Shown here piece by piece: positions 4,432 to 57,112 of a stretch of DNA of 64,000 nucleotides. The notes under the pieces were generated by a model. The model saw only the letters and a list, made by a program, of their open reading frames with translations. It did not search any database and was not told the origin of the DNA. This DNA comes from Rhizobium leguminosarum (GTDB lineage Bacteria; Pseudomonadota; Alphaproteobacteria; Rhizobiales; Rhizobiaceae): NCBI RefSeq assembly GCF_001652265.1, contig NZ_LWBS01000263.1:1-64000 (forward strand). Direction: 5' to 3'. Position 1 is the stretch's first letter. Every line of letters starts with the position of its first letter. The position numbers and the translations under genes are program-made.

Positions 4432-4445
4432 TTTTTACCCCTCCG
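4400..4445 (+). other. probable element attachment site at the 3' end of guaA
   Basis: Chromosomal guaA ends at 4431 and an integrase gene reads away from it starting at 4751, the standard layout for an integrase that targets the 3' end of a conserved gene and restores its last codons. The exact core cannot be fixed because the second copy was not found in this window and probably lies beyond the right edge. From general knowledge, IntG of Mesorhizobium tripartite ICEs uses guaA in this way. Confidence 0.55.
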
Positions 4446-4547
4446 GCAGTATCCGTTTGTACGCTCTGATACGCCATAACGAGTTGAAATGTCGGGATAA
4501 TGTTGATGTCATCTATCGCCGTCTATCGAGGCGTAGTGCTCCGATTT

Positions 4548-4739: not shown

Positions 4740-4750
4740 TGGAGGCACTC

Positions 4751-35910: not shown

Positions 35911-37110
35911 TTAGCCTCCGTAAGGTTCGAGCACCAGATCGCGGGTGACGATCACGCGCACCGGGAAGCCGGGTCGGATCGTCAGCGTTGGGGCGATGTT
36001 GAGCTGGCGACGGATGATCTGCTGGCCAGCGTCGTTGATCGTGTCCTGACCACCGTTGCGGATCGCCTGGATCAGCCGGTCGTCATCATTTGTGGCGAGT
36101 TCCGCGCCGACGCTGAGCAGCGTCGACAGACCCGCCGCCTTGGCGAGATCCCACCAGTGATAGTCCACGCCGTCTTCAAGACCGGCATAGCCTTGGGTGT
36201 CGGCGCCGGGCTGGCGTTCCAGCACGATGGAACGACCGTTCGGGAAGATCAGCCGGTTCCAGACGAGCAGGATGCGGCGCTGACCGAAGCCGACATCGTT
36301 GCTGTACTCGCCGATGATGCGCGTGCCCTGCGGGACGAGGAGCAGCCGACCGGTCGGACTGTCGTAAATGCTCTCGGTGACCTGGGCGGTGATCTGGCCG
36401 GGGAGATCGGAGCGGATGCCGGTGATCAGCGCAGCCGGAATCACCGCACCCGTCTGCAGCAGGTAAGGCGACGCGGGTGCCATCACGCGGTCGGGCGCGA
36501 CCGTGCGTCGATCGACGCTGGCGTTGAGGAAGGCCGCTTGCCGCTCCTGCGCGGTTGGCGCGGGCTGCCCCGGTAGTCCGAGCCCGGTCAGACCGGGAAG
36601 CGCGGGAGCGCCGCCGCCGGGCATTCCCGTCGCGGCCGCCGTTCTCGTCTCGGTTTGGAAGAAAACGCGCGAGGTGCGCGCCGCTTCCTCTTCCGCGCGC
36701 CTGCGTTGTTCCTCCGGGTCGACAGTCGGCGTGGCAACGGACGGTGGAGCGACGGGCTGGCCGCGGTTCTGGGCATCGAGAATCGGCCGTCCGAGGTCGC
36801 CAGGCAGTGGTGGGCCAAGGACGGGGCCAGTGTAGTCGCGGGGCAGCCCGGAGAGCCCATCGGCCGCCGGCCGATTCTCCGTCGAATAGAGCTCTTCACC
36901 GCTCCTGCCGGCCTCGCGGGTCTGGAGCGCATAGATCAGTGCGCCGCCGAGGCCGACGGAGGCGACCAGCCCCAGACCCGCCAGCACTCTTCTCGAGAGC
37001 CGCGTTACGCGCGGCGGCTCTGCGCGGAGCCGCATCGATACCGCCGATGGCGACGGAGATCCTGTCAGCGGGACGTCGTCGCTCTCGGCCTTAGCTTCGT
37101 TCTCATTCAT
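35911..37110 (-). CDS. trbI: conjugal transfer protein TrbI (VirB10-like)
   Basis: A 399-residue VirB10 homologue. A cytoplasmic N-terminus, one transmembrane helix (about 43-62, VLAGLGLVASVGLGGALIYAL), a Pro-rich periplasmic linker with many Ala/Gly/Pro, and the conserved C-terminal TrbI domain (SPYLLQTGAVIPAALITGIRSD to GFPVRVIVTRDLVL). It spans from inner to outer membrane as part of the core complex. Its start overlaps the trbG stop as ATGA. Confidence 0.95.
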   Translation of the reverse strand: MNENEAKAESDDVPLTGSPSPSAVSMRLRAEPPRVTRLSRRVLAGLGLVASVGLGGALIYALQTREAGRSGEELYSTENRPAADGLSGLPRDYTGPVLGPPLPGDLGRPILDAQNRGQPVAPPSVATPTVDPEEQRRRAEEEAARTSRVFFQTETRTAAATGMPGGGAPALPGLTGLGLPGQPAPTAQERQAAFLNASVDRRTVAPDRVMAPASPYLLQTGAVIPAALITGIRSDLPGQITAQVTESIYDSPTGRLLLVPQGTRIIGEYSNDVGFGQRRILLVWNRLIFPNGRSIVLERQPGADTQGYAGLEDGVDYHWWDLAKAAGLSTLLSVGAELATNDDDRLIQAIRNGGQDTINDAGQQIIRRQLNIAPTLTIRPGFPVRVIVTRDLVLEPYGG

Positions 37111-38093
37111 GACGAGGGCCTCCCATCGGTGCGGACGATCCGGACGGTCTGCTGGCGATCCCCGCTGCCGAGCCGCAGCTCGGCGGCGCCGAAGAGCCGG
37201 TCGACGATCAGAATATTCTGGTAGATGCGGCTGTTGGCGATCTGTGCCTCGCCGTCTGCGCCGATGACGAAGAGCGGCGGCATCTCGCCCTGCACGATGC
37301 CGCGCGGGAACTCGACATAGACATGCCTGCCATCATCGTAGACCGAGACGGGCCGCCACGGCGGATTGCCCCCGGTCAGGCCATAGCGGTAGTTCCGTGC
37401 CGCCATCGCCGGGATAGCTGGCGTTGCAGGAACGGTCTGGCGCTGCGATGCCGGGGGCTGCGGATAGGCCCAGGCGACAGCCGGCATATAGGGGCGTTCG
37501 CCCGAACGCAGCTCGATCATGTAGATGCGCCTGTCTGTGGTGATCACGAGATTGGTCGAAAGATCCAGCCGTGTCGGTTTGACCAGGACATGGACCCGCC
37601 GTGTGACGCCGCTGCCGCTTTCGGTATCGCCGATGACCCAGCGCGCCGTGTCGCCGGCGGCGATCGGACCTGCACCGGTCAGGCTCTCGCCGGGTTCGAG
37701 CGCAATGTTGGTTATCTGCCCGGGTGTTGCATAGACTTGGTAGAGGGCGCCTTCGCTCCAGGGATAGATCTGGATCGAGTTGTAGTAGCCCTCGCGGCGC
37801 GGCTCGACCCGGGCGGCGGCATTGGCGTTCTGCACACGCCCCGTTGGCGTGTTTGCTGCGGTTCCACCTTTCGCCGGCGCCCAGGCCGGAGGAGTGTGGA
37901 GCGGACGGGGTCGCTCATCCGTGACGGCGGCCGGAATGGCGGGCATTGGTGGCACATCGGCGTCGTAGCTGATCTGCGGCGGTTTCGGCGCCGTGGCGCA
38001 GCCGGCGAGCATTGTTGCGGAAAGCAGGATTGCCGCAAACGCGGGTCTACGGAAAAGCGGCTTGCCGGCACTACGGGAAGTCTGCCCGTTCAT
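37107..38093 (-). CDS. trbG: conjugal transfer protein TrbG (VirB9-like)
   Basis: A 328-residue lipoprotein-type TrbG. Lipobox LAGC near residue 32, a Pro-rich linker, then the VirB9 domain (NSIQIYPWSEGALYQVYATPGQ to ELRLGSGDRQQTVRIVR). It forms the outer-membrane core ring with TrbI. ATG at 38093 overlaps the trbF stop; a longer open frame upstream runs through trbF out of phase and is not real. Confidence 0.95.
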   Translation of the reverse strand: MNGQTSRSAGKPLFRRPAFAAILLSATMLAGCATAPKPPQISYDADVPPMPAIPAAVTDERPRPLHTPPAWAPAKGGTAANTPTGRVQNANAAARVEPRREGYYNSIQIYPWSEGALYQVYATPGQITNIALEPGESLTGAGPIAAGDTARWVIGDTESGSGVTRRVHVLVKPTRLDLSTNLVITTDRRIYMIELRSGERPYMPAVAWAYPQPPASQRQTVPATPAIPAMAARNYRYGLTGGNPPWRPVSVYDDGRHVYVEFPRGIVQGEMPPLFVIGADGEAQIANSRIYQNILIVDRLFGAAELRLGSGDRQQTVRIVRTDGRPSS

Positions 38094-38773
38094 TGGCTCA
38101 TCTCCCGTGACCAGTTGATGGCGTTGACGTAGATGCCGAGCGGGTTCGCCCGGAGCCGATCGGCGTTGCGTGGGACCTGCACGACGATCGTCAGGATCGC
38201 GGTCCAGCGTTCGGTCGTAGCGAGTTGGCCGTTCTCGTAACGGCGCTCGACCCAGGCGACACGGAAGCTGTCCGGAGACGCGCGGATGACGCTGGAGATC
38301 TCGACGGCGACCTGCTGGCGGCCGACCTTGGTGAACGGGTCGTTGGCCCGCGCATAGTCGTTGAGCGCCGCCGCGCCGCGGTCGGTCGTGAAGTCGTAGG
38401 CGCGCAGCCAGTTCTGTCGTACGATGATCGCGTCGGCCGGGATCGAGCGGACCTGCTCGATGAAGCGCGCCAGATGGAAGGCGATCTGCGGATCGGTCGG
38501 GCGATAGTCGGCAACGGCCGGAGCGATCGCCTGCGCCTGACCGAGCCGGTCGACCTGTACCACCCAGGGCACGACCGTGCCGCGCGCCGATTGCCAGACC
38601 AGGGCGGCAGCGAAGCCCGCCGACAGGATCAGCGAGCCGAAGGCCATCAGCCGCCAGTTCTTCGCCTGGACGCGCGCCGCGCCGATACGCTCGTCCCAGA
38701 CCTGTGCGGCGCGTTGATAGGGCGTCTCGGGTTCGAGGGCTTTGCCATAGTGGGTGGAGGGTCGTTTGAACAT
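38090..38773 (-). CDS. trbF: conjugal transfer protein TrbF (VirB8-like)
   Basis: A 227-residue bitopic inner-membrane protein: cytoplasmic N-terminus with FKRPSTHYG, one transmembrane helix (about 44-62), and a periplasmic NTF2-like VirB8 domain. It scaffolds assembly of the type IV secretion channel. Start and stop overlap the neighbours trbL and trbG by four bases each. Confidence 0.95.
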   Translation of the reverse strand: MFKRPSTHYGKALEPETPYQRAAQVWDERIGAARVQAKNWRLMAFGSLILSAGFAAALVWQSARGTVVPWVVQVDRLGQAQAIAPAVADYRPTDPQIAFHLARFIEQVRSIPADAIIVRQNWLRAYDFTTDRGAAALNDYARANDPFTKVGRQQVAVEISSVIRASPDSFRVAWVERRYENGQLATTERWTAILTIVVQVPRNADRLRANPLGIYVNAINWSREMSQ

Positions 38774-40137
38774 CAGTGGTTGCCTTCAGAAAGATTGACG
38801 GAAGAGCCGCCGCCATGGGCGTCACCGGAGCGCACGGCATGGGCGGTCGCCTGGACGGCATGGGTCATGCGTTGGGAGCGGCGCATGCGCTGCGCCCATG
38901 CGGGCGGGCCACCTGCGGCTGCCGGAGCGGCGGAGTCGCCACCGTCGCCGGCTGCGTCGCCACCGACCGAGCCCATGGTCGAGGAGCCGCCGGTGGATTC
39001 GAACGCGACCTTGCCACCGGCATTGAAGCTTGAGCGCATGCTCGCGGCGGCGCGTGAGGAGGCACGGCGCAGCGGCGAGACGGCCGCGCTGCCGCCAGCG
39101 CGGGCGACACTGCCCAGGCCCGACGAGACGCCACTAATGCCCGACTGGCCGGCTGCGCCGAGGCTGTAGGCCGTGGATGCGCCACCCGCCATTGCGGCGC
39201 CGCCCCGGGCGGCCGCTGCGGCGCCTCCGGCAAGTGCCGCACCGCCGGATGCGACGACGCCGACCGCGCCGGCTCCGGCGGCTATCATACCGCCCGCCGC
39301 GAGGCCCGTACCCACCGCCGCGCCGGCGCTGAGCTGCGGGCCGCCGGAGACGATGCCGCTGGCGATACCAGGGCCGAAGATGCCGAGGCCGAGAAGCGAC
39401 AGCGCGGCGAGCACGATGGCCATCGCCTGGTCGATCGAAGGGGTTGCGCCGCCGAAGCCGGCGGTGAATTCGGAGAACAGCGTCGAGCCGATGCCGATGA
39501 TGACGGCCAGCACCAACACTTTGATGCCGGACGAGATGACGTTGCCGAGGACGCGTTCGGCCATGAAGGCGGACTTGCCGAACAGGCCGAACGGAATGAG
39601 GACGAATCCGGCGAGCGTCGTCAGCTTGAATTCGATGAGCGTGACGAAAAGCTGGATGGCCAGGATGAAGAAGGCGAGCAACACCAGCGCCCAGGCGAGG
39701 AACATGCAGGCGATCTGGATGAAGTTCTCGAAGAACGACCAGTAGCCCATCAGGCCTGAGATCGATTCCAGAAGCGGACGTCCGGCGTCGAGGCCGGTCT
39801 GCGCCACCTTACCGGGCCGCAGCAGATCGGCGGTCGTAAAGCCCGTGCCGCTGGCCTTCAGGCCCAAGCCGGCGAAGCTCTCGAAGACGATGCGCGCCAG
39901 GTTGTTCCAGTTGCCGATGATGTAGGCGAACACGCCGACGAACAGCGTCTTCTTCACGAGCCGGGCGAAGATGTCGTCGTCGCCGCCCCAGGACCAGAAT
40001 AGCGCCGCCAGCGTCACATCGATCACGATCAGCGTCGTGGCGATGAACGCGACTTCACCGCTCAGCAGGCCGAAGCCGCTGTCGATGTAGCGGGTGAAGA
40101 CTTCGAGGAAGTGGTCGATGACGCCGGTGTTGCCCAT
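38773..40137 (-). CDS. trbL: P-type conjugative transfer protein TrbL (VirB6-like)
   Basis: A 454-residue polytopic inner-membrane channel component. About six to eight hydrophobic segments lie in residues 25-300, followed by a long Gly/Ala/Ser-rich C-terminal region (about 300-454) typical of TrbL and poorly conserved. ATG at 40137, four bases after trbK; the longer frame upstream overlaps trbK and is rejected. Confidence 0.95.
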   Translation of the reverse strand: MGNTGVIDHFLEVFTRYIDSGFGLLSGEVAFIATTLIVIDVTLAALFWSWGGDDDIFARLVKKTLFVGVFAYIIGNWNNLARIVFESFAGLGLKASGTGFTTADLLRPGKVAQTGLDAGRPLLESISGLMGYWSFFENFIQIACMFLAWALVLLAFFILAIQLFVTLIEFKLTTLAGFVLIPFGLFGKSAFMAERVLGNVISSGIKVLVLAVIIGIGSTLFSEFTAGFGGATPSIDQAMAIVLAALSLLGLGIFGPGIASGIVSGGPQLSAGAAVGTGLAAGGMIAAGAGAVGVVASGGAALAGGAAAAARGGAAMAGGASTAYSLGAAGQSGISGVSSGLGSVARAGGSAAVSPLRRASSRAAASMRSSFNAGGKVAFESTGGSSTMGSVGGDAAGDGGDSAAPAAAGGPPAWAQRMRRSQRMTHAVQATAHAVRSGDAHGGGSSVNLSEGNH

Positions 40138-40141
40138 GATG

Positions 40142-40504
40142 CTACCGCGTCTCAGTCGGCGGCGACACCGGCGCCGGCTGGGCGGGGACAGCCGCGTCCG
40201 CTTGCGGATGGGGAGCCGGCGCCGCTTCCGGCAGCCGCTCAGCGGGTCGAGCGCCGGGCGCGAGGAAGCGGTGGCGGTTCTCCGCCCAGGCCCGCAGGCA
40301 GGCCGCGTCGCGCGGCCCGGCTTCTCCGAGGGCCTGGCAGCGGAACAATTCGTCGCGCAAGGGGTCGGACGGGGTCGTGTTCGACCGTGACGAAGCCCAG
40401 CTTTCCGCCGGCTCCTCATTCCGGCTCATCTCGATCGCCGTCGCGGTGACGGCCACCGCGACGAACACCACCGCGCCAAGTCGGGCGAGCGTCTTGCCGT
40501 CCAT
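40142..40504 (-). CDS. trbK: putative entry exclusion protein TrbK-alt
   Basis: A 120-residue protein with an N-terminal hydrophobic helix (GAVVFVAVAVTATAIEMS) and the segment DPLRDELFRCQALGEAGPRDAACLRAWAENRHRF, the signature of the TrbK-alt family with two conserved cysteines. It occupies the trbK position between trbJ and trbL. Proteins in this place block redundant transfer into cells that already hold the element; function here is by position and family only. The C-terminus is Pro/Ala-rich. Confidence 0.85.
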   Translation of the reverse strand: MDGKTLARLGAVVFVAVAVTATAIEMSRNEEPAESWASSRSNTTPSDPLRDELFRCQALGEAGPRDAACLRAWAENRHRFLAPGARPAERLPEAAPAPHPQADAAVPAQPAPVSPPTETR

Positions 40505-40514
40505 GGCCGCGCCC

Positions 40515-41282
40515 TCAGTTGCCGCTGTTAGGGAACATGCGGGCGTTGCCGGCCTGGTAGCCGGAGCCCGGCGTCAGGAAGCGGCGACGCTGCTCGCGGC
40601 CCTGCTCGGCGGCGGCTGCGCGCTCCGCCTCTGACAGCGCCTGCGCCCGACCGTTGGCGGCCACGACGGCCGTGAGGTCGGCAAGCTGCTGCGCCAGCAG
40701 CGCGAGGAGCTGATTACCGGCCTGCGTCGCCTGCAGCGCCCCGGTCGCCCCTTGGCTTCGGCCAATCAGGGAGGACATTTCGGTGCGGTTGGTGTCGAGA
40801 TTTCCGACGACACCGGCCTGGACGCGCATGGCGTCCTGAAGCCCGCCGACGGTGTTCTGCCAACGCTCGCGGGCGCCCGCCACGAGCTGCTGATCGGACG
40901 CCGACATGGAGGCGTTGCCGTAGGTGGTCTGGAACGCCTGATCGATGTTTTGAACATCGTACGCAATCCGCTGCGCCTGTTGCAGCAGCTGCTGCGTGCG
41001 TTGGACTGACTGCTGAAGTTGCTGGATCGAGGAGTACGGCAGGCTCGCGAGATTGCGGGCCTGATTGATCAGCATCGTCGCCTCGTTCTGAAGCGAGCTG
41101 ATCTGGTTGTTGATCTGCTCCAGCGACCTGGCCGCCTGAAGCACGTTCTGCACGTAGTTTGTGGGATCCTTCACGATCAACTGTGCCGCTGCAGGCGGCG
41201 CCCAGAAGATCGGCGACAAGGCAGTGGAAGCGGTGAGCAGCGCAGCGGCAAGGCGCACGCCGCGCGAACGGCGCGGGTTCAT
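40515..41282 (-). CDS. trbJ: P-type conjugative transfer protein TrbJ (VirB5-like)
   Basis: A 255-residue secreted pilus-tip protein. Signal peptide with cleavage near APPAAAQ, then DPTNYVQNVLQAARSLEQINNQI and long Gln-rich coiled coils (about 55-120). It belongs to the VirB5-like family acting in pilus assembly and recipient contact. Its start overlaps the trbE stop by four bases. Confidence 0.95.
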   Translation of the reverse strand: MNPRRSRGVRLAAALLTASTALSPIFWAPPAAAQLIVKDPTNYVQNVLQAARSLEQINNQISSLQNEATMLINQARNLASLPYSSIQQLQQSVQRTQQLLQQAQRIAYDVQNIDQAFQTTYGNASMSASDQQLVAGARERWQNTVGGLQDAMRVQAGVVGNLDTNRTEMSSLIGRSQGATGALQATQAGNQLLALLAQQLADLTAVVAANGRAQALSEAERAAAAEQGREQRRRFLTPGSGYQAGNARMFPNSGN

Positions 41283-43717
41283 GAGGACGTCTCCATGTTG
41301 TCGAGGTTGGGAATGAGATCAGCGGCCCATTCGAGGCCGCGGTGGCGCAGCCAGGCCGGCAGGAAATCCTCGCGGCCGTGCGCTGCGATCGTCTGTGCGA
41401 TCGCAGCCTGATCGGTCTTTGAGGATGTCGCGCAGAGGGCGAGCGCCACGTCTGAAAGGCCGAGTTCGAACAGGCGATTGCCGCGCCGCGACTGGCAGTA
41501 ATAATCGCGTTTGGGCATGGCCCGGGCGAGAATCTCGATCTGGCGATCGTTCAGGCCGAAACGGCGATAGATGGCGGTGATCTGTGGCTCGATCGCGCGT
41601 TCGTTCGGGAGCAGGATGCGGGTCTGACAGCTCTCGATGATGGCGGGCGCGATAGCAGACCCGTCGATGTCGGACAGCGACTGGGTGGCGAAGATGACGC
41701 TGGCGTTTTTCTTGCGCAGCGTCTTCAGCCATTCGCGCAGCTGACCCGCGAAGCCCTCGTCATCGAGCGCGAGCCAGCCTTCATCGACGATCAGCAGCGA
41801 CGGCCGGCCGTCGAGACGATCCTCAATGCGATGGAAGAGATAGGCGAGGACCGCTGCGGCGGCGCCTGTTCCGATGAGACCCTCGGTCTCGAACGCCTGG
41901 ACCGACGCCTGCCCAAGATGTTCAGCCTCGGCATCGAGCAGGCGACCATAGGGGCCGCCGACGCAGTAGGGCCGCAGCGCCTGCTTGAGATCATTGGACT
42001 GCAGCAGGACCGACAGGCCCGTCAGCGTGCGTTCGCCGATCGGTGCGGATGCCAGCGACGAGAGCGCCGACCAGAGATGCTCCTTCACGTCCGGCGTGAT
42101 GCTGATGCTTTCACGCGCGATAATCGCGGTAAGCCAGTCAGCCGCCCAGGCGCGTTCCGCGACATCATCGATCCGGGCAAGCGGCTGAAGCGATACGCTG
42201 TCGTCGGCGCCTTCGGTGAGTCCGCCGCCGAGATCGTGCCAGTCGCCGCCCATGGCGAGGGCCGCGGCGCGGATCGAGCCACCGAAATCGAAGGCGAACA
42301 CCTGGGAGCGCGGATAGCGGCGGAACTGCAGCGCCATCAGCGCCAGCAGCACCGACTTGCCGGCGCCGGTTGGCCCCACGATCAGCGTGTGGCCGACGTC
42401 GCCGACATGGATGGAAAGCCGGAACGGGGTCGAGCCTTCGGTCTTGCCGAACAGCAGTGGGGGTGCTGCGAAGTGCTCGTCCCGTTCCGGTCCCGCCCAT
42501 ACCGCAGACAGCGGGATCATGTGGGCGAGATTGAGCGTGTTGATGGGTGGTTGCCGGACATTGGCGTACACGTGGCCGGGCAGCGACCCGAGCCAGGCGT
42601 CCACCGCATTTATGGTCTCGGGCATGGCGGTGAAGTCGCGGCCCTGAATGACCTTCTCGACGAGGCGCAGCTTCTCAGCCGCGATTCGTGGATCCTCGTC
42701 CCAGACAGTGATCGTCGCCGTCACATAGGCTTGACCGGCATAATCGGCGCCGAGCTCCTGCAACGCCATATCGGCGTCGGCGGCCTTGTTCGCCGCGTCG
42801 GTGTCGACCAGCACTGACGCCTCATTGGTCATCACCTCCTTGAGGATGGCGGCGATCGACTTGCGCTTGGCGAACCACTGCCGCCGGATCTTGGTCAGCA
42901 GCTTGGTGGCGTCGGTCTTGTCGAGCAGCACCGCGCGCGTCGACCAGCGATAGGGGAAGGCGAGCCGATTCAGCTCGTCGAGGATGCCGGGCGTCGTCGC
43001 GGTCGGAAAACCGACGATGGTGAGGACGCGCAGATGCGTGTCGCCGAGGCGCGGCTCGAGCCCCCCGGTGAGCGGCTGATCGGCCAGCAGTGCATCGAGA
43101 TACATCGGTGTCTCGGGCACGCGGACGCGGTGGCGCTTCGTCGAAACGGTCGAGTGCAGGAACGTCAGCGTCTCGGCATCATCCAGCCAGGCGCATTCCG
43201 GCATGAAGGCCTCGATGAGCTGGAGGATGCGATCGGTGCGATCGGTGAAGCCGCGCAGGACTTCGTGGGCATCGACGCCGGCGTGATCACGTCCTTCGTA
43301 GAGCCAGGTTTCAGCGCGTGCGACGTCCTCGGCCGGTGGCAGATAGAGGAAGGTCAGGAAGTAGCTCGACTCGAAATGCGCACCGGCTTCCTCGAAGTCG
43401 GCCTTGCGTTCGGCGTCGACCAGCGCGGACGCGCTGTCGGCGAACATGCTGGCGGGATAGGTCGCGGCGCCGTGCCGCTGGGCTTCGACGAAGATCGCCC
43501 AACCGGAGCCGAGGCGGCGGAAGGCGTTGTTGAGGCGACCGGCGACCGCGATCAGCTCGGCCGGCACGGCGCTGTCGAGATCGGGTCCGCGAAACCGGGC
43601 GGTGCGCTGCAAGCTGCCATCCTTGTTCAGCACGATGCCTTCGCCGACAAGTGCGACCCAGGGAAGGAAGTCGGCAAGCCGGGTGTTGCGGTTGCGATAT
43701 TCGGCAAGGTTCATCAT
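41279..43717 (-). CDS. trbE: conjugal transfer ATPase TrbE (VirB4-like)
   Basis: An 812-residue VirB4-family ATPase that energises pilus biogenesis and substrate transfer. N-terminal CagE/TrbE domain (about 1-400); Walker A GPTGAGKS at 448-455; Walker B LLIVDEGWLALDDEG; motif IFATQSLSDIDGS. Length and order are complete. The start is one of two adjacent ATG codons (43717 or 43714). Confidence 0.97.
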   Translation of the reverse strand: MMNLAEYRNRNTRLADFLPWVALVGEGIVLNKDGSLQRTARFRGPDLDSAVPAELIAVAGRLNNAFRRLGSGWAIFVEAQRHGAATYPASMFADSASALVDAERKADFEEAGAHFESSYFLTFLYLPPAEDVARAETWLYEGRDHAGVDAHEVLRGFTDRTDRILQLIEAFMPECAWLDDAETLTFLHSTVSTKRHRVRVPETPMYLDALLADQPLTGGLEPRLGDTHLRVLTIVGFPTATTPGILDELNRLAFPYRWSTRAVLLDKTDATKLLTKIRRQWFAKRKSIAAILKEVMTNEASVLVDTDAANKAADADMALQELGADYAGQAYVTATITVWDEDPRIAAEKLRLVEKVIQGRDFTAMPETINAVDAWLGSLPGHVYANVRQPPINTLNLAHMIPLSAVWAGPERDEHFAAPPLLFGKTEGSTPFRLSIHVGDVGHTLIVGPTGAGKSVLLALMALQFRRYPRSQVFAFDFGGSIRAAALAMGGDWHDLGGGLTEGADDSVSLQPLARIDDVAERAWAADWLTAIIARESISITPDVKEHLWSALSSLASAPIGERTLTGLSVLLQSNDLKQALRPYCVGGPYGRLLDAEAEHLGQASVQAFETEGLIGTGAAAAVLAYLFHRIEDRLDGRPSLLIVDEGWLALDDEGFAGQLREWLKTLRKKNASVIFATQSLSDIDGSAIAPAIIESCQTRILLPNERAIEPQITAIYRRFGLNDRQIEILARAMPKRDYYCQSRRGNRLFELGLSDVALALCATSSKTDQAAIAQTIAAHGREDFLPAWLRHRGLEWAADLIPNLDNMETSS

Positions 43718-43729
43718 GGCCGCGCGCCT

Positions 43730-44011
43730 TCAAACCGACAGATGACCGGGGATGCGCAGATGCCTGCGCACGACATCGACGAACTGCGGATCGCGTTTGG
43801 CGGCCCAGACGGCGGCGAAGTGACCGATCGCCCAGAGACCGAGGCCAACGAGCCAGAGGCGCAGGCCGAGCCCGAGCGCCGCCGCCAGCGTTCCATTCAG
43901 GATGGCGATCGAGCGAGGCGCACCGCCGAGCAGGATGTGCTCGGTCAGCGCGCGATGAACGGGGACCGAAAAGCCCGGCACTTCGCCTGCCGTCTCCGCC
44001 GACGTCGCCAT
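43730..44011 (-). CDS. trbD: conjugal transfer protein TrbD (VirB3-like)
   Basis: A 93-residue inner-membrane protein with VPVHRALTEHILLGGAPRSIAILNG and two hydrophobic helices (about 36-70), typical of TrbD/VirB3. It works with TrbE at the base of the channel. Its start overlaps the trbC stop by one base. Confidence 0.95.
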   Translation of the reverse strand: MATSAETAGEVPGFSVPVHRALTEHILLGGAPRSIAILNGTLAAALGLGLRLWLVGLGLWAIGHFAAVWAAKRDPQFVDVVRRHLRIPGHLSV

Positions 44012-44343
44012 CAGACCAGCGCTCCGCCGCCGAACGAGAAGAAGGACAGGAAGAAGCTTGACGCGGCGAAGGCGATCGACAGGCCGAAGACGATCTGGAT
44101 CAAGCGCCGGAAGCCGCCCGAGGTGTCGCCGAAGGCGAGCGTGAGGCCAGTCACGATGATGATGATCACCGCGACGATCTTGGCGACCGGTCCCTCGATC
44201 GACTGCAGGATCTGCTGCAGCGGTTGTTCCCAGGGCATCGACGAGCCCGAAGCGTGGGCCGCAGGCGCGAGCGCCAAAGTGAGGAAGGTGACGGAGGCCG
44301 CCGTCGCGATGTGACGGCGGATACGCATGGCATGGTGGATCAT
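44011..44343 (-). CDS. trbC: TrbC/VirB2-like pilin
   Basis: A 110-residue pilin precursor. Long signal peptide cleaved near AHAS, then two hydrophobic helices (GPVAKIVAVIIIIVTGLTLAF and IVFGLSIAFAASSFFLSF) joined by a short basic loop. TrbC subunits are processed by TraF, cyclised in some systems, and assembled into the conjugative pilus. The traF gene is present at 52134-52679. Coupled to trbB by ATGA overlap. Confidence 0.95.
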   Translation of the reverse strand: MIHHAMRIRRHIATAASVTFLTLALAPAAHASGSSMPWEQPLQQILQSIEGPVAKIVAVIIIIVTGLTLAFGDTSGGFRRLIQIVFGLSIAFAASSFFLSFFSFGGGALV

Positions 44344-45323
44344 GATGGATCTCCTGTGAGGTGCTGGTTGGCGGGGATGACGCGGTAATCGCAGTCGGGG
44401 CCGAGCCCTTCGACGCGAGCTAGTTCGGCGAGCCGGCGCGAGGCGCCGCGGCCGGAGAGCACGGCAACCAGATCGATCGTCTCGGCGATCAGGACGCGCG
44501 GAACGGTGACGACAGCTTCCTGAATGAGCTGCTCGAGGCGGCGCAGCGCGCCGATGGCGGTGCCCGCATGAATGGTGCCGATACCGCCGGGGTGGCCGGT
44601 GCCCCAGGCCTTGAGCAGATCGAGCGCTTCAGCGCCGCGCACCTCGCCGATCGGGATACGATCAGGGCGCAAGCGCAGCGAGGACCGGACGAGATCGGAC
44701 AGCGTGACGACGCCGTCCTTCGTCCGCATGGCAACGAGGTTCGGGGCGGCGCATTGGAGCTCGCGCGTGTCCTCGATCAGCACCACACGATCGGAGGTTT
44801 TTGACACCTCGGCGAGCAGCGCGTTGGCAAGGGTGGTCTTGCCAGTCGAGGTGCCGCCGGCGACCAGGATATTGCGGCGCTCGGCGACCGCGACCCGTAG
44901 CGCATCGGCCTGGTCGGCGGCCATGATGCCGGCCGTGACATAGTCATCGAGCGTGAAAACGGCGACGGCGGGTTTGCGGATCGCGAAAGCTGGAGCGGCG
45001 ACCACCGGCGGCAGCAGCCCCTCGAACCGCTCGCCCGTTTCCGGCAACTCGGCGGAGACGCGTGGGCTGCCTGGATGAACTTCGGCGCCGACGTGGTGCG
45101 CGACGAGGCGAACGATGCGCTCGCCGTCGGCCGGCGACAGCCGTTCACCCGTGTCGGACAACCCCTCCGACAGCCGGTCGATCCAGAGCCGCCCATCGGG
45201 GTTGAGCATCACCTCGACGATCGTGGGATCTTCCAGAAACTGGGCGATCGCCGGCCCAAGGGCCGTGCGCAGCATGCGCGCGCCGCGAAGGATTGCCTCC
45301 GATTTCTGGTGAGTGGCCGCCAT
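44340..45323 (-). CDS. trbB: conjugal transfer ATPase TrbB (VirB11-like)
   Basis: A 327-residue hexameric VirB11-type ATPase. N-terminal domain (1-145), Walker [10 protein letters not shown] (156-164), Asp box [11 protein letters not shown], Walker B/His box [21 protein letters not shown] and GTIHAGT. It drives pilus assembly and DNA transfer at the inner membrane. First gene of the trb operon; the promoter should lie in 45324-45477, shared with the divergent gene at 45478. Confidence 0.97.
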
Positions 45324-48984: not shown

Positions 48985-50724
48985 CTACAGGCCGAGGCCG
49001 CGCTTGCGGCCAAAACTCCAGTCGACCCCGCCATCGCCGCGGGCGACGCCGGAGACCTGCTGGCCAAGGTGCTTTTCGAGAGACGGCGACCAGGGCACGA
49101 GCTGGAAGCCGAGGCCGTCGTCGATCATGGCGAAGCGGCCCGATGCGAGAGAGATGCGCTGCCGATAGGCGCCGGCGACATATTCGCCGGTCCCGGCCTT
49201 GGCGAACGGGCGCCCGGTCTCGGCCGCGAGCTTCGCACCGACCGCTTCGATCTCGCGCTGACGCAGCGTGTCGATGAGGTTGCGGGAGAAGATGACGCTG
49301 CGGCCGTGGCGTTCGGCCAAGCGCTGCTCGATCAGATGTTCAGCGCGGCGGTCCATCGCGTCCCGCACCTTGGCACCGAACCCGCCACTGCCTAGCGCTA
49401 CCGGCTCGCGGGCGATCGCCTGCCGGTCGAGCCAGGTCGCGCCGGTCGCAGTGACCTGGGCGGAGACGTCGAGATCTGAGCGGACGGCAAGCGCGACGCG
49501 CCGCTGCCCCCGCGCATCGTCGAACCTGCGCAGCTCCACGATCGAACCCGGCCCGCTGTCGCCGGCGGCCTCAAGGTCAGGCAGCTTGATGTGATGGGTG
49601 CGGCCGTCGACCCCGTCGACAACGGCATAAGCGGTGCCCTTGAGTTCGTCGTCGAGGCCTCGCGTCACCAGACGGCCGACGACGGGATCGTTCAGGCTTT
49701 CGCCGGCGAGGACATAGCTTGCCGCGCCGCGCTCGATGCCGCGGTCGGTCAGCGCGCGATGCATGCGCTTGATGATGTCGCCGCGTTCGCCGAGCTCGCG
49801 CAGGGTCGCCTCGGCCTTCTCCGAAATTGTCCATTGGCCGGGACCGATCTCGTCGGCGAGGCCAAGGCCTTCGAGCTTGCGGAGCCGCCCGACCTTCAGG
49901 GCGTGGAATTCATCCGGCTGCCGGTCGGAATGCGGGGCGAGATCGACGACGCCGGTCCTGTAGGCGTCGCGCGCGAGCTGACGATCGAGATTGGTCCAGC
50001 GCTCGGACTCGACCTGGCGCTCAATGGTGCGACGGATTTCCTGATCGGTGCGCGGCCCCAGCTCCTGCGTGATGAGATCGCGCGCGCGGTCGCGCATGCC
50101 CTCCTTGATGTAGTCGCGCGAGATCACGAGGTTCTCGCCCTCGTCGCGGACACCGCGCATGATCAGATGGACATGGGGATGCTCGGTATTCCAGTGATCG
50201 ACGGCGACCCAGTCGAGCCTCGTGCCGAGATCCTTCTCCATCTGTCCGACCAGCTCACGGGTGAAGCCCTTGAGGTCCGCCATCTCCACCGCGTCGTCGG
50301 GTGACACGATGAAACGGAAATGATGCCGGTCATCCTCGCACCGCTCCGCGAACGCCTTGGGATCGGCGTCATCCCCGCCGGGACCGAACAGCCGGGCCTT
50401 CTCTCCATCCCGGGTCACGCCTTCGCGGCGGAGATAATTGAGATGGGTGCCGAGCGGTGCGTTGCGCCCGCCCTGGCGCACGACGCGGGCTTTGACGACG
50501 GCGCCGCGCGAGCGGGCGGTCAGCAGCCGGTTGGCCTGCACCGCCGCGCGCTGGCCGCGACCAAAACGCGAGCGGTTGCCGGGACCGATTCTTCCTTGCC
50601 GGGATACCGCACCGCCGGCCTTCTGCGCGGCGGCAAGCGCCTGCGCGATGAAGGGCCGGGCCTGCTGGGCACGCGTCGAGCGGATGCGGCCTGGCCGGAT
50701 ACGGAAATCGTCCTCGGCACTCAT
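48985..50724 (-). CDS. relaxase (DUF3363/VirD2-like)
   Basis: A protein of about 579 residues that would nick oriT and lead the strand into the recipient. The N-terminal relaxase domain has HLNYLRREG (about 94-102), RHHFRFIVSP (133-142) and the metal-binding HPHVHLIMRG (HxH type, 182-186). The C-terminal DUF3363 region spans about 270-579. Start may be ATG 50724, 50730 or 50742. It is the relaxase type called RlxS in Mesorhizobium ICEs. Upstream lies a non-coding stretch with nested inverted repeats. Confidence 0.92.
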   Translation of the reverse strand: MSAEDDFRIRPGRIRSTRAQQARPFIAQALAAAQKAGGAVSRQGRIGPGNRSRFGRGQRAAVQANRLLTARSRGAVVKARVVRQGGRNAPLGTHLNYLRREGVTRDGEKARLFGPGGDDADPKAFAERCEDDRHHFRFIVSPDDAVEMADLKGFTRELVGQMEKDLGTRLDWVAVDHWNTEHPHVHLIMRGVRDEGENLVISRDYIKEGMRDRARDLITQELGPRTDQEIRRTIERQVESERWTNLDRQLARDAYRTGVVDLAPHSDRQPDEFHALKVGRLRKLEGLGLADEIGPGQWTISEKAEATLRELGERGDIIKRMHRALTDRGIERGAASYVLAGESLNDPVVGRLVTRGLDDELKGTAYAVVDGVDGRTHHIKLPDLEAAGDSGPGSIVELRRFDDARGQRRVALAVRSDLDVSAQVTATGATWLDRQAIAREPVALGSGGFGAKVRDAMDRRAEHLIEQRLAERHGRSVIFSRNLIDTLRQREIEAVGAKLAAETGRPFAKAGTGEYVAGAYRQRISLASGRFAMIDDGLGFQLVPWSPSLEKHLGQQVSGVARGDGGVDWSFGRKRGLGL

Positions 50725-50838
50725 GGGCATGGCCCCGCACATCGCGCGAAGCCGAGGAAATCATTGAGAAAGCGCCGCGCGCGCAGGCTGCGCCGATCAG
50801 GCGCACCTCGCGCAAACGCGCCATAACCCCTTGAAAAA

Positions 50839-52133: not shown

Positions 52134-52679
52134 TCACCGCGTCGGCGCGCGCCAGACGAAGCGGCCATCGCCGTCCTCGTCGGTGTAGAGAGGGGTGGCT
52201 CGGCCGATCACGGCGGAGGCGGGAAGCGGGCCGAAGTAACGGCCGTCGAGGCTGTCGCGAACCTGCCAGTTCATCAGGAACAGCTCGCCCTCGGCGACGA
52301 CGCGGCAGCCCTGCCAGATGGGCAGCGGATTGCCGCGACGATCGCGGTCCAGCGCATCTCCCATCGGCACAGCGTCGACGGTGATCGCGAGGCCGGTCCT
52401 GCAAACCCGCTGGCCGGGCAGCGCCACGACGCGCTTCATCAGCGGAACGCCGCGCGGGAGATAGCCGCGCTCGGCGAGGAAGCTCGCGAGCGGCTCGGGC
52501 GCGCGCACGGCGACCAGATCGGTGACGTCCGGGGACCGGTCCGGCTCAATGGCATAGAGCCCGACCGGCGTGCTGGCCGACGCGTTCCAGATCAGCTTCG
52601 GTGCGAAGGAGACGAGCGACAGGACGCCGAGCAGCGATACGGCGGCGGTCGTGGTGACGGCGTAGCCGAACCGGGTCAT
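52134..52679 (-). CDS. traF: conjugative signal peptidase TraF (S26 family)
   Basis: A 181-residue membrane-bound peptidase that matures the TrbC pilin. N-terminal membrane helix (about 8-26), nucleophile Ser36 in ASTPVGLY, general base Lys82 in LMKRVVALPG, and the C-terminal SLDGRYFGPLP motif of S26 peptidases. It is coupled to DUF2840 by ATGA overlap. Confidence 0.95.
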   Translation of the reverse strand: MTRFGYAVTTTAAVSLLGVLSLVSFAPKLIWNASASTPVGLYAIEPDRSPDVTDLVAVRAPEPLASFLAERGYLPRGVPLMKRVVALPGQRVCRTGLAITVDAVPMGDALDRDRRGNPLPIWQGCRVVAEGELFLMNWQVRDSLDGRYFGPLPASAVIGRATPLYTDEDGDGRFVWRAPTR

Positions 52680-53194
52680 GCGCCGATCCTCCGCGCCAGG
52701 AGGAAGGCGCGATGGCGCTGCAGCGTGTAGGCGCGGGGCGTCTCGCCGACGGTCAGACGGTTGTGAACGTGCCGCCAGTGATCGGGCGCGACGTCGATGG
52801 GATCGATGCCGATCGCCTCGATCGCGTCGATGAGCTGGAGCATGTGCTCCACCTTCGGCCAGCCATCAACGCGCAGCAGGACGTCGCCGCCAGGCGTCAC
52901 GGTCGGGATCGTCTGGCAGGCTTCGTCGGCACCGACCGCGCGTAGGATGTCGAGGCGGGAGAGCACGGTGCCATGCTCGTTCGCGGCCCAGCGCACCAGC
53001 GCGAAGGTCGTGCCGGGAGGGAAGAAGAGGATGCGGCGGCGACGGTCGAGGACCTGTTCGCGCACCTCGCGGCCGAAGCGGATCCAGTGCTCGATCTGCT
53101 TCTCGATCCAGACGAGTTCGACCTGGGTGAGATCTTCCGGCGGCGTGTGAAGGGCGCGGCCGGCGCGCGCGGATGCGGCGGCAAGGCCGGTCAT
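52676..53194 (-). CDS. DUF2840 domain protein
   Basis: A 172-residue protein with VELVWIEKQIEHWIRFG and RRRRILFFPPGTTFALVRWAANEHGT, the pattern of DUF2840, found between parA and traF in rhizobial ICEs. Function unknown. The ATG at 53194 overlaps the stop of the RHH gene; the longer open frame reads through it out of phase. Confidence 0.9.
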   Translation of the reverse strand: MTGLAAASARAGRALHTPPEDLTQVELVWIEKQIEHWIRFGREVREQVLDRRRRILFFPPGTTFALVRWAANEHGTVLSRLDILRAVGADEACQTIPTVTPGGDVLLRVDGWPKVEHMLQLIDAIEAIGIDPIDVAPDHWRHVHNRLTVGETPRAYTLQRHRAFLLARRIGA

Positions 53195-53445
53195 CGGTCG
53201 TCTCCTTGGGATGGTGGGAATTCGCACTCGAACAGCGCGCGGAGCATGTCGGCGACGGTCTGGCCGCGTTGGAAGGCCGCGATCTTGATCCGGCCGCGCA
53301 TGTCGGCGGTGACGTCGATGGTCAGCCTGGCGGTGAAGTCGGCGGCGGCATCCGCGGGCGGCGACGGACGGTCTGGCGCTTTGACCCAGCTTTCCGGATC
53401 GGCCGGGCGGGCCGCGAAGCTGCGTTTCGGGGACCGCTCGCTCAT
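53191..53445 (-). CDS. small ribbon-helix-helix protein after parA
   Basis: An 84-residue protein. The C-terminal part (FTARLTIDVTADMRGRIKIAAFQRGQTVADMLRALFE) is a ribbon-helix-helix fold, as in ParB-type partners or repressors coded next to parA. It could bind a partition site and act with ParA. It overlaps parA and DUF2840 by four bases each. Confidence 0.85.
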   Translation of the reverse strand: MSERSPKRSFAARPADPESWVKAPDRPSPPADAAADFTARLTIDVTADMRGRIKIAAFQRGQTVADMLRALFECEFPPSQGDDR

Positions 53446-54080
53446 GGCCCGATCCCCAAGATCTCGGCGGCGAACGCGGCGATCTCCCGCGCGGCGGGCG
53501 ATGTCTCGTCCTGCTCGGCCGCGAGCCGCCCGGTCTGCACGACATCAGCGAAAGCGATGCGCTGGCCGATCGTGGTGCGCAGCGGCGGCGGATCGTGGTC
53601 CGCGAGCGTCTCGGCGGTTTCGCGGGCGAGGATCGTGCGGGCCGCACAGCGGTTCAGCACGAACCGCGCCTTAAGGTCCGGTCGATAGATCCGCGCTTCG
53701 CTGAGCAACGTCAGCATCTCGGCCGACGCCCAGCCGTCGAGCGGGGACGGCTGCACCGGGATCAGCACGAGGTCCGTGGCGAGCAGCGCCGACCGCATCA
53801 GGCCGGCGACGCGCGGCGGTCCGTCGATGACGACATGATCGACGTCGCGCGCCAGTTCCGGCGCTTCGCGATGGAGCGTATCGCGGGCCAGGCCGACGAC
53901 ACCGAACAGCCGATCCAGTCCCTCCCGGCTGCGCTGCTGCGACCAGTCGAGCGCTGACCCCTGCGGATCGGCGTCGATCAGCGTGACGCGCTTGCCGGCT
54001 CGCGCCCATTCACCGGCGAGATGCAGCGCCAGCGTCGTCTTGCCGACGCCGCCCTTCTGGTTGAGGAGCGCGACGATCAT
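53442..54080 (-). CDS. parA: ParA family partition ATPase
   Basis: A 212-residue short ParA: deviant Walker A KGGVGKTT (9-16), DADPQGSALDW, and Walker B HVVIDGPP. Short ParAs act with a small RHH partner, here the downstream gene. In ICEs they stabilise the excised circle. The upstream 200 bp hold a palindrome and iterons. GGGAGACC lies ahead of the start. Confidence 0.95.
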   Translation of the reverse strand: MIVALLNQKGGVGKTTLALHLAGEWARAGKRVTLIDADPQGSALDWSQQRSREGLDRLFGVVGLARDTLHREAPELARDVDHVVIDGPPRVAGLMRSALLATDLVLIPVQPSPLDGWASAEMLTLLSEARIYRPDLKARFVLNRCAARTILARETAETLADHDPPPLRTTIGQRIAFADVVQTGRLAAEQDETSPAAREIAAFAAEILGIGP

Positions 54081-55187: not shown

Positions 55188-55475
55188 TCAGCGCGCGAAG
55201 CGGCCGCCGACGGTGGCGGAGGATGCGGTGGTCTGGCGTTTTGCTGGCAGCACGGTCCCGCCGCGAGGATCGGAGGTCGAGGTCACGAGGCCGCGATCCG
55301 CCCAGGCTTGAAGGTCATCGACGGAATAGACGACGCGACCGCCGAGCTTGCGGTAGTTCGGGCCGGTCCCATAGGTCCGGTGCTTTTCAAGAGTGCGCTC
55401 GGAGAGACCAAGGAAGCGGGCGGCCTCCTGCGTTCTCAGGTAGCGTGGCGGTAGATTGGCGGGTTTTTCGGCCAT
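55188..55475 (-). CDS. excisionase-like helix-turn-helix protein
   Basis: A 95-residue protein of the MerR/excisionase fold: YLRTQEAARFLGLSERTLEKHRTYG is the recognition helix region and RKLGGRVVYSVDDLQAW the wing. It heads the run excisionase-repA-parA-traF-relaxase. By fold and position it resembles RdfS-type directionality factors of rhizobial ICEs, but general transcriptional repressors of this fold also occur here. ATG at 55475; a palindrome lies just upstream. Confidence 0.85.
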   Translation of the reverse strand: MAEKPANLPPRYLRTQEAARFLGLSERTLEKHRTYGTGPNYRKLGGRVVYSVDDLQAWADRGLVTSTSDPRGGTVLPAKRQTTASSATVGGRFAR

Positions 55476-55521: not shown

Positions 55522-55601
55522 GGGTTGCGAGCACGGTGGCGCGAAGACGGCGCCTCGGACGATGTCGAAGTAAGATGCTAAAATCGACACGCGAACGGGT
55601 A

Positions 55602-56201
55602 TCAGCGATCCCGGCGTGGGCGGCGCAGCAATGTCCGGTAGCCGCCGCGAACGAGCTTCGTGCCGTCGCGGGCGAGACGGATGGTGATCTCCCGGATCGG
55701 GTCGCCGACCCAGGACGCTGCGTCGATCTTGTACCGGGGGAAGAGATGCTCGGCGACGGTGCGGTAGATGGCGCCGCTCGCGCGCGCGTCGACAGCGCGC
55801 AGCATCTGGCGGGCGCGCTGTCGTCTTTGCGGCGTGATGCGCGGATCGGGCGGCACACGCTTTCCGAACATTGCGTGCCAGAGGCGTTCAACCGCGGTCA
55901 GCCGGTCGGGCGTCAATTCGTCGAACAGGATGAAGGCGCCGAGTGGACGTGCATCATCGACGTCGACCAGGGCCACGTCGTGGGACTCGCCCCGCACCGT
56001 AAGCCGGATCAGATCAGGATCATGCTCGATGATGGCATGGGCGTGCAGATCCTCAACGAGGAGGCGGAGTTCTCCCGCCGGGTTCGGTCCGGCGGTGAAC
56101 GGGAGTGTCGCGGGATCGGCTTGCGGGGTCCAGAAGATCGGCTGGATGAGCGCCGAGTTGCGAGGGTCGGCGACGAAATCGCAACCCCCATTGTTCGGCA
56201 A
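55602..56201 (-). CDS. DUF2285 protein, C-terminal frame of an FseA-like activator
   Basis: An open frame of about 199 codons with the DUF2285 pattern (LWHAMFGKRVPPDPRITPQRRQRARQMLRAVDARASG, IREITIRLARDG, RGGYRTLL). On its own it has only a TTG start inside the preceding gene, and conserved sequence begins at VADPRNSALIQP. The missing N-terminus is encoded by the overlapping frame at 56053-56367, one base out of phase. The full product (about 254 residues) would come from a +1 shift at 56175-56178, as known for FseA (Msi172-Msi171) of ICEMlSymR7A. It would activate excision and transfer genes. Confidence 0.8.
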   Translation of the reverse strand: MPNNGGCDFVADPRNSALIQPIFWTPQADPATLPFTAGPNPAGELRLLVEDLHAHAIIEHDPDLIRLTVRGESHDVALVDVDDARPLGAFILFDELTPDRLTAVERLWHAMFGKRVPPDPRITPQRRQRARQMLRAVDARASGAIYRTVAEHLFPRYKIDAASWVGDPIREITIRLARDGTKLVRGGYRTLLRRPRRDR

Positions 56202-56367
56202 ACTCCTGGGCGATGTCTTCGGTCAGTCGCCCGACGGCTACCAGTTCCTGATATGATTTTCTGTAATCGGGATTACGACGCAAGAACTCCCAGGCAAGAT
56301 CGCCGGGCGTTAACTTGTCGATATAGTCATAGGCAGCTTCAGACTGCCAACTTTCATCCTCGGACAT
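56053..56367 (-). CDS. DUF6499 protein, N-terminal frame of an FseA-like activator
   Basis: Encodes 104 residues in the zero frame. Residues 1-64 are the conserved DUF6499 domain (SEAAYDYIDKLTPGDLAWEFLRRNPDYR, then AEQWGLRF); residues 65-104 are Arg/Pro-rich and look like out-of-frame sequence. The ATG at 56367 has GGTGGAG upstream. The conserved reading continues in the +1 frame after the Phe codon at 56176-56178. In fused relatives WGLRF is followed directly by the segment seen in the other frame. Confidence 0.8.
   Translation of the reverse strand: MSEDESWQSEAAYDYIDKLTPGDLAWEFLRRNPDYRKSYQELVAVGRLTEDIAQEFAEQWGLRFRRRPSQLGAHPADLLDPASRSRDTPVHRRTEPGGRTPPPR
56175..56178 (-). promoter_or_regulatory. 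putative +1 programmed ribosomal frameshift site (TTTC)
   Basis: On the coding strand the zero frame reads CGA TTT CGT. If tRNA-Phe slips from TTT to TTC the next codon is GTC, joining WGLRF to VADPRNSAL, which restores the domain order of fused DUF6499-DUF2285 proteins. This matches the frameshift control described for FseA. A simple mutation is the alternative. Confidence 0.65.
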
Positions 56368-56485: not shown

Positions 56486-56749
56486 TCAGTGCAGACGACC
56501 CTGAAGCAGCTGAAAGAAGCCGTTGGTGGTCATCCATTTCGCTCGGTCGAGATGGCTGGCGTAGATGCGTAAGGCGCGCTCCGGCTCGGCCTTGGCATCG
56601 AGGCCGAAGAGGACCTCGACGACCTCCCTCCAGTCCGCGCTCGCCGCGTCGGCGTCGAGCAGCCGGGCATAGAGCTTCAGATGCGCCTCGTCATAGGTGG
56701 TCAATACCGCCTCGGCCGGCGGCTGATCGAGAAAATCGTCTTTGGTCAC
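56486..56749 (-). CDS. small DUF2285 protein, QseM-like antiactivator
   Basis: An 87-residue protein with the DUF2285 core DEAHLKLYARLLDADAASADWREV...AERALRIYASHLDRAKWMTTNGFFQLL. Single-domain DUF2285 proteins next to fseA in Mesorhizobium ICEs (QseM) bind the activator and keep transfer off. The GTG at 56749 is chosen; a TTG at 56824 would add 25 residues. It lies 118 bp upstream of the fseA-like genes and after an XRE gene on the same strand. Confidence 0.75.
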   Translation of the reverse strand: MTKDDFLDQPPAEAVLTTYDEAHLKLYARLLDADAASADWREVVEVLFGLDAKAEPERALRIYASHLDRAKWMTTNGFFQLLQGRLH

Positions 56750-56869
56750 AACATCCCCCGATGGCGAGATGTATCCAAACTGGAGGAGATTGTTAACCGT
56801 GATTTGACCGGAATGATGGCGCAAGGCCCTGACGCGGGAAGAGGTGGCAGCGCCGCGACGTGTCGAACG

Positions 56870-57112
56870 TCAGGTTTCCTTCTTTGTCTCAACGAGCAGT
56901 ACTCCCTTGCCCTGATCGGAGTTCAGGAAGACGATGCCAGCGCGTTCGAAAGCCCGTCTCACCTCATCGCGCGTGCTCTCAAACACCTCGAGGCCGCTGG
57001 GGGATTCGAGGCGCTTGAGCGCGGTCAATGAGACCCGGGCCTTGTCAGCGAGCGTCTCCTGTGTCCAACCCAGCAGCGCGCGTGCGGCCCGAAACTGTCG
57101 GGCGGTGATCAT
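56870..57112 (-). CDS. XRE family repressor, QseC-like
   Basis: An 80-residue protein made of one helix-turn-helix (AARALLGWTQETLADKARVSLTALKRLE, about 9-36) and a short wing ending GVLLVETKKET. Small XRE proteins at this place (QseC) repress the antiactivator gene and themselves. GGAGG lies ahead of its ATG, and a palindrome is found at 57156-57170. The match to QseC is by size, fold and position. Confidence 0.8.
   Translation of the reverse strand: MITARQFRAARALLGWTQETLADKARVSLTALKRLESPSGLEVFESTRDEVRRAFERAGIVFLNSDQGKGVLLVETKKET

What the first reader, a model, noticed from the sequence alone, without database searches (positions are those of the whole stretch)
56053..56367. FseA-like activator split over two frames with a +1 frameshift at TTTC
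Seen: DUF6499 reading ends in WGLRF in one frame and the DUF2285 reading begins at VADPRN in the +1 frame; skipping one base after TTT (56176-56178) joins them exactly. Known: FseA of ICEMlSymR7A is made by such a programmed shift. Inference: excision of this element is held back by rare frameshifting.
Basis: partly seen in the sequence, partly recalled or inferred. Interest (0 to 1): 0.85.

Follow-up and report, generated by a model that had tools for sequence, protein, structure and literature searches.

The report
Frameshifted activator of a mobile element
A self-transferring DNA element carries its master switch gene cut into two reading frames, so a working switch protein should appear only when a ribosome slips forward one letter; this control is already described in related elements, and this copy is an intact further example.

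Summary
On the minus strand the DUF6499 frame (56367-56176) and the DUF2285 frame (56174-55605) join when one base (56175) is skipped after TTT. All 39 testable named relatives show the same +1 relation at TTT|C. In a wider sample 79 of 80 intact split alleles have TTT followed by C or T, and in a held-out sample 64 of 64, although TTT is only 25-34% of Phe codons in these genes. One-frame alleles mostly lack it: TTT in 1 of 16 and 4 of 16. QseM-like and QseC-like genes lie upstream; an RdfS homologue lies downstream behind an inverted repeat with the published FseA-box spacing; the setting is a conjugative element beside guaA. This is an FseA-family +1 programmed frameshift, already published as widespread (about 61% of 4709 homologues, PMC10359603): a new member of a known kind. 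One possibly unreported detail: the Arg codon before the slip codon is CGA in 33 of 39 split alleles and 20 of 20 held-out, against about 10% background. Shift rate and effect on excision were not testable.

The parts
56176..56367 (-). fseA 5' part (msi172-like), DUF6499 domain, ATG to slip codon TTT
   Evidence: PF20109 E 1.9e-23
56175..56190 (-). slip cassette TGG GGG TTG CGA TTT C: SD-like GGGGG, 6-nt spacer, E-site codon CGA, P-site slip codon TTT, skipped base C at 56175
   Evidence: sequence; conservation
55602..56174 (-). fseA 3' part (msi171-like), +1 frame, DUF2285 domain, stop codon included
   Evidence: PF10074 E 6.2e-31
56053..56175 (-). 0-frame tail of the unshifted product (104 aa from the ATG), ends at its own stop
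56486..56824 (-). QseM-like antiactivator (lone DUF2285)
   Evidence: QseM structure 7UQT E 3.1e-16; PF10074 E 9e-4, below the Pfam cut-off; upstream in 37 of 39 named relatives
56870..57112 (-). QseC-like HTH regulator
   Evidence: HTH_3; conserved position in 37 of 39 named relatives; the QseC label is by position and from published descriptions, not from a match to QseC
55563..55589 (-). FseA-box candidate TGTCGA-N15-TCGACA upstream of rdfS
   Evidence: exact hexamers with N15 or N16 in 32 of 39 regions, the window included
55188..55475 (-). rdfS-like excisionase (recombination directionality factor)
   Evidence: RdfS 8DGL E 2.3e-11; PF12728
54289..55176 (-). replication initiator RepA (RPA)
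   Evidence: PF10134 E 4.7e-87
52134..54080 (-). parA, DUF2840, traF (S26 peptidase)
48985..50742 (-). relaxase (DUF3363, RlxS-type)
   Evidence: PF11843 E 1e-92, PF03432 E 2e-6; the RlxS label is by analogy
35911..45323 (-). trb mating-pair genes, including TrbI, CagX/TrbG, TrbL, TrbE and a TrbB-like ATPase
4739..6007 (+). tyrosine integrase about 0.3 kb past guaA (2869-4431)
   Evidence: PF00589 E 4e-23; GMP synthase PF00958 and PF00117

Best explanation
[quoted passage not shown] The ribosome reads the DUF6499 frame and pauses over the SD-like UGGGGG. With the weakly held CGA codon in the E site, the tRNA-Phe (anticodon GAA, recalled) paired to UUU re-pairs with the overlapping UUC one base on, and reading continues in the DUF2285 frame. 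The fused protein binds the inverted repeat (55589-55563) and switches on the rdfS-like gene and the transfer genes behind it. The upstream QseM-like protein holds it off by binding DUF6499. Shown here: the domains, the join, the conserved site, the codon signature, the neighbouring genes and the box. Inferred from ICEMlSymR7A: low shift rate, DNA binding, activation, antiactivation, control of excision. The pausing and E-site roles are my inference.
For: Domains on either side of the junction. Same +1 relation and TTT|C in 39 of 39 testable named relatives. In sample 1, 76 TTT|C, 3 TTT|T and 1 TGT|C of 80 intact split alleles, against a TTT share of 25% of Phe codons in the same genes; 42 of 42 TTT after removing near-copies. 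Held-out sample: 61 TTT|C and 3 TTT|T of 64. One-frame alleles have TTT in 1 of 16 and 4 of 16. A +1 join restores the spacing to a conserved Trp (71 of 81). Arg codon before the slip codon is CGA in 33 of 39 (16 of 20 without near-copies) and 20 of 20 held-out split alleles. GGG for the Gly after Trp in 60 of 79, background 12%, and 38 of 62, background 15%. QseM, RdfS and FseA-box matches. Literature: FseA is made by +1 shift and about 61% of 4709 homologues are split (PMC10359603, passages); [quoted passage not shown]
Against: No expression data exist for this locus. No downstream RNA stimulator was found: mean z about 0 over 42 alleles against mononucleotide shuffles, though one 110-nt fold downstream in the window itself gives z -2.4. 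The SD-like GGGGG lies 6 nt from the slip codon, not the 3 nt of prfB (the prfB figure is recalled). Five one-frame alleles also keep TTT followed by C (L144, L200, L206, L207, L209). A re-run of sample 1 with a looser motif left 5 of 86 split rows without TTT|Y at the motif (TCC|T 2, TGT|C, AAA|T, TAC|C). A published paper states that the two halves in Azorhizobium caulinodans are separate ORFs without frameshifting (PMC9601964, passage).
Confidence: 0.92

Rival explanations
1. The two frames are translated separately, and a DUF6499 protein and a DUF2285 protein assemble without frameshifting.
For: Claimed for A. caulinodans rihF1a/rihF1b (PMC9601964, passage). A TTG lies 9 codons upstream of the junction in the C frame here.
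Against: A start codon within 10 codons upstream in the C frame occurs in only 21 of 81 split alleles. The first one after the junction is at a median of 32 codons (59 here), past conserved residues such as the Trp at 14. The TTT|Y and CGA synonymous bias has no use in this model. An Azorhizobium oxalatiphilum locus, L039, has TTT|C with +1.
Confidence: 0.04
2. A frameshift mutation or assembly error in a dying gene.
For: Some relatives do carry extra indels (L049, L054, L074, L119).
Against: 39 of 39 testable named relatives share the same +1 at TTT|C; both halves are open and match their families in the window.
Confidence: 0.01
3. RNA polymerase slippage rather than ribosome slippage makes the in-frame message.
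For: It would also give a +1 product.
Against: A run of only three T is short for polymerase slippage (general knowledge). The CGA and SD-like bias acts at the codon level. Published FseA is described as translational (PMC10359603).
Confidence: 0.03
4. The frameshift is real, and the abundant unshifted DUF6499 product also works, as a sponge for QseM, so the shift sets an activator-to-decoy ratio. This adds to the best explanation rather than replacing it.
For: QseM binds Msi172 in two-hybrid tests (PMC10359603, passage). A QseM-like gene lies directly upstream here.
Against: The length of the N frame past the domain start is not conserved: 49 to 305 residues among the split rows printed. QseM adjacency is not tied to the split state: 9 of 21 one-frame alleles in the held-out sample have it.
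Confidence: 0.15

Closest known systems
FseA (msi172-msi171) of ICEMlSymR7A, Mesorhizobium japonicum (PMC10359603, PMC5882170, PMC11963761; the primary PNAS 2015 paper was not held)
   Same: DUF6499 plus DUF2285 split with +1 shift; RdfS target downstream; inverted-repeat FseA box with 15-16 bp spacer; QseM antiactivator.
   Different: Here fseA follows qseC-like and qseM-like genes on the same strand instead of traI2 (traI2-msi172-msi171 operon in R7A). No LuxI or LuxR hit lies on this contig, though 2 and 9 hits lie elsewhere in the genome. The rdfS-like gene is followed by repA and parA.
One-frame FseA homologues, e.g. Pseudomonas putida S12 pTTS12 and Delftia acidovorans plasmid (L143, L142)
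   Same: Followed by an HTH gene in the rdfS position, RepA, ParA and DUF2840 genes in the same order; same spacing across the join.
   Different: Single reading frame, CTG or CTA at the slip position and CGC before it; a DUF2958 gene upstream instead of a QseM-like one.
prfB (release factor 2) +1 frameshift
   Same: SD-like stimulator upstream, P-site re-pairing one base on, weak E site proposed to help (PMC5009743, passages).
   Different: Here no stop codon in the A site and no autoregulation by a release factor; different spacing to the slip codon (prfB spacing recalled).

Membership tests
FseA family | DUF6499 followed by DUF2285 in one translatable unit | tested here: met
   (unit only if one base is skipped)
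FseA family | Conserved +1 slip site when split | tested here: met
FseA family | rdfS-type gene as target, behind an FseA box | tested here: met
   RdfS match and TGTCGA-N15-TCGACA; the published hexamer letters were in a figure I could not see, so the match is in layout and spacing
FseA family | Frameshift product made and activates rdfS | not testable with these tools
   needs reporter or mass spectrometry
FseA family | Quorum-sensing control by TraR/TraI on the element (an R7A trait, not defining) | tested here: not met
   no PF00765 or PF03472 hit on contig C263; the element end is missing, so absence is provisional
QseM family (upstream gene) | Lone DUF2285 related to QseM, no DUF6499 | tested here: met
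   7UQT E 3.1e-16; only PF10074 found by Pfam
Integrative and conjugative element | Integrase, relaxase, coupling protein, mating-pair genes | tested here: met
   (coupling protein TraG recognised by eye, not by a family search)
Integrative and conjugative element | Direct-repeat att sites at both ends | tested here: inconclusive
   no repeat over 13 bp of the guaA end on the 75,014-bp contig; the other end may lie on another contig

The most novel reading that the evidence does not exclude
The FseA slip site is a composite cassette under selection as RNA, not only as protein: SD-like UGGGGG, six bases, a weakly paired E-site codon (CGA nearly whenever Arg is needed), then UUU_Y. It was present in the ancestor of both deep branches of the family, is kept where shifting is needed, and mostly decays when a lineage puts the gene back into one frame (at least 7 changes of state). 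The E-site element would be a second tuning knob that sets how often these elements excise.
Probability: 0.45. Interest if true: 0.45.

Novelty: new member of a known kind. Interest (0 to 1): 0.3.

Why it matters
It adds a clear, intact example with no quorum-sensing gene on its contig, unlike R7A. It also gives a nucleotide-level test that helps tell programmed shifts from broken genes in this family: TTT|Y with GGG and, where Arg is used, CGA. Such genes are easily half-annotated: several two-piece plasmid matches had no listed feature over them (whose gene table is incomplete by the tool's own statement). If the E-site codon matters, it offers a simple way to test how codon pairing sets the rate of a bacterial +1 shift that controls gene transfer.

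Tried and rejected
Tried and dropped. (1) QseM only with split genes: sample 1 gave 69 of 87 split and 0 of 21 one-frame loci with a QseM-like gene upstream. The tree contrast was not significant (7 pairs, median p 0.25). The held-out sample gave 39 of 66 split and 9 of 21 one-frame, and the re-run of sample 1 gave 69 of 91 and 2 of 31, the 2 being one place fetched twice. Rejected. (2) Downstream RNA stimulator: none over 42 alleles. (3) Conserved internal start for the C half: no. (4) H3 (NZ_CP133113) looked one-frame by tblastn but is split with a further indel. (5) att repeat at the guaA end: none over 13 bp. (6) All-GC codons are avoided at the E-site position in split alleles (4 of 81; 3 of 64; control positions 33% and 38%), but held-out one-frame alleles show it too (1 of 16), so I rest on the synonymous CGA test. 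(7) CGA in one-frame alleles is 0 of 11 Arg codons (0 of 15 with the looser motif), but 10 of those 11 come from one beta/gamma clade, so this contrast is close to a single observation. (8) Structure model: not obtained.

Rows dropped before counts; 2 of 42 loci (Brucella) left out; 1 of the other 40 (L041) has no DUF6499 half; 26 of 134 loci lacked one domain by my profiles; 4 with further indels, 2 without motif and 1 inconsistent, of 87 split; 5 of 21 one-frame without motif; 13 of 222 loci lacked one domain; in sample 1, 1 of 91 split had no motif and 4 a stop between; in the held-out sample 2 of 66 split and 5 of 21 one-frame had no motif. The looser motif misplaces some sites (L144's TTT is not seen there). 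The held-out loci were 28 returned plus 60 chosen by me, partly by length of open frame, so they say nothing on prevalence; one search found more matches than I fetched and its list was cut.

Full report
What is there. On the minus strand, 56367-56176 encodes 64 residues ending WGLRF that match DUF6499 (PF20109, E 1.9e-23), and 56174-55605 encodes, one frame on, a protein matching DUF2285 (PF10074, E 6.2e-31). Skipping one base (C, 56175) after TTT gives a 254-aa protein.

Is it conserved? A genome-collection scan gave 42 named loci. Two from Brucella species were set aside and 40 examined. One (L041) has no DUF6499 half; the other 39 all have the +1 relation with TTT|C. Their N halves are 42-94% identical to the window's, and they come from rhizobia, sphingomonads, Azospirillum, Acetobacteraceae and others. 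A mutation or assembly error private to this genome is excluded. The DUF6499 family was found in 25 of 385 genomes of the class, 43 of 398 of the phylum and 102 of 396 of another order.

Is it programmed? Of 80 intact split alleles with the WGL motif, the slip codon and next base were TTT|C in 76, TTT|T in 3 and TGT|C in 1, while TTT is 25% of Phe codons in the same genes; after removing near-copies it was TTT in 42 of 42. A second sample from another order, gathered after these counts, gave 61 TTT|C and 3 TTT|T of 64; without near-copies of sample 1, 63 of 63 TTT, background 34%. One-frame alleles have TTT in 1 of 16 and 4 of 16; all five keep a C after it, so the signature is not always lost. 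The Gly codon after Trp is GGG in 60 of 79 (background 12%) and 38 of 62 (background 15%), which makes an SD-like UGGGGG, noted already in PMC10359603. The Arg codon before the slip codon is CGA in 33 of 39 (16 of 20 without near-copies) and 20 of 20 held-out split alleles (16 of 16 without near-copies), against 9-10% background. In one-frame alleles it is 0 of 11, but 10 of these belong to one beta/gamma clade. Skipping one base puts the first following Trp at residue 14 in 71 of 81 split alleles, as in 14 of 16 one-frame alleles; skipping 0 or 2 does so in none of the 81. [quoted passage not shown]

How often did it change? On a tree of 67 C-half sequences the split/one-frame state changes at least 7 times on well supported branches, and both deep branches contain split alleles with TTT|Y. 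I read this as an old shift site lost repeatedly; the tree alone cannot give direction.

Surroundings. Upstream on the same strand are a QseM homologue (structure 7UQT, E 3.1e-16) and a small HTH protein in the place of QseC. Downstream are an RdfS homologue (8DGL, E 2.3e-11), RepA, ParA, DUF2840, TraF, relaxase and trb genes. The gene order is shared by nearly all named relatives (qseM-like and qseC-like in 37 of 39, rdfS and repA in 38 of 39; contig ends explain the misses). Between fseA and rdfS lies TGTCGA-N15-TCGACA (55589-55563). The exact hexamers with 15 or 16 bases between them occur in 32 of 39 regions, the window included, and in none of 200 rounds of mononucleotide shuffles. [quoted passage not shown] the hexamer letters were in a figure I could not see, and the distance to the start codon is larger here (about 88 bases) than the 62-67 given there. 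By sequence alone the joined protein matches the solved RovC only weakly (6xz5, E 0.009). An integrase lies about 0.3 kb past guaA, so the element is most likely integrated there; its other end was not found on the 75,014-bp contig.

How it probably works. The mechanism is that of FseA: most ribosomes finish a short DUF6499 product; a few slip at UUU_C and make the activator, which binds the box and turns on rdfS. The QseM-like protein restrains it. No AHL synthase or receptor gene is on this contig, so the input signal may differ from R7A, perhaps a QseC/QseM switch alone. The rate and effect of the shift remain untested here.

What did not hold. In sample 1 QseM-like genes were found only upstream of split alleles, which suggested a coupling; the held-out sample broke it. 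No downstream RNA structure was found over 42 alleles.

Known or new. Papers seen: PMC10359603 (abstract, passages, sections 18 and 25); PMC5009743, PMC5882170, PMC8627217, PMC11963761 and PMC9601964 (passages). The primary 2015 paper was not held. The split, the conserved +1 site, its spread and the SD-like sequence are in print. I did not find the CGA preference in what I read; searches are the basis, and the unheld paper may contain it. PMC9601964 says A. caulinodans lacks the shift; the A. oxalatiphilum locus L039 has it, so that claim deserves a re-check.

Noticed in passing
window 2869-6007: guaA (GMP synthase) is followed directly by a tyrosine integrase: likely integration at the guaA 3' end; no matching repeat over 13 bp elsewhere on the 75-kb contig.
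   Followed up: partly
L039, Azorhizobium oxalatiphilum: Split fseA with TTT|C, although a paper (PMC9601964) says the related A. caulinodans element has no frameshift.
   Followed up: partly
L074 (NZ_CP133113.1, Rhodopseudomonas plasmid pBAL398.2): fseA allele with the normal +1 site plus a further indel in the C half, beside a sister plasmid (L075) with an intact split allele in the same strain.
   Followed up: partly
L041 (Phyllobacterium phragmitis contig): DUF2285 half present but no DUF6499 half found upstream, although about 3 kb of contig lies there.
   Followed up: no
L200, L206, L207, L209: One-frame alleles with a similar WGISF junction keep TTT then C (read TTT CAC or TTT CAT in frame), each with a QseM-like gene upstream.
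   Followed up: no
L158: Natural one-frame allele reading WGLRF-GADP directly through the junction with TTC, close in protein sequence to split alleles.
   Followed up: no
window 6000-35500: Cargo between integrase and trb genes: prolyl oligopeptidase, L,D-transpeptidase, sensor kinase, oxidoreductases, MFS transporter, metallo-hydrolase (MBL-fold superfamily) and LysR-like regulators (by eye).
   Followed up: no
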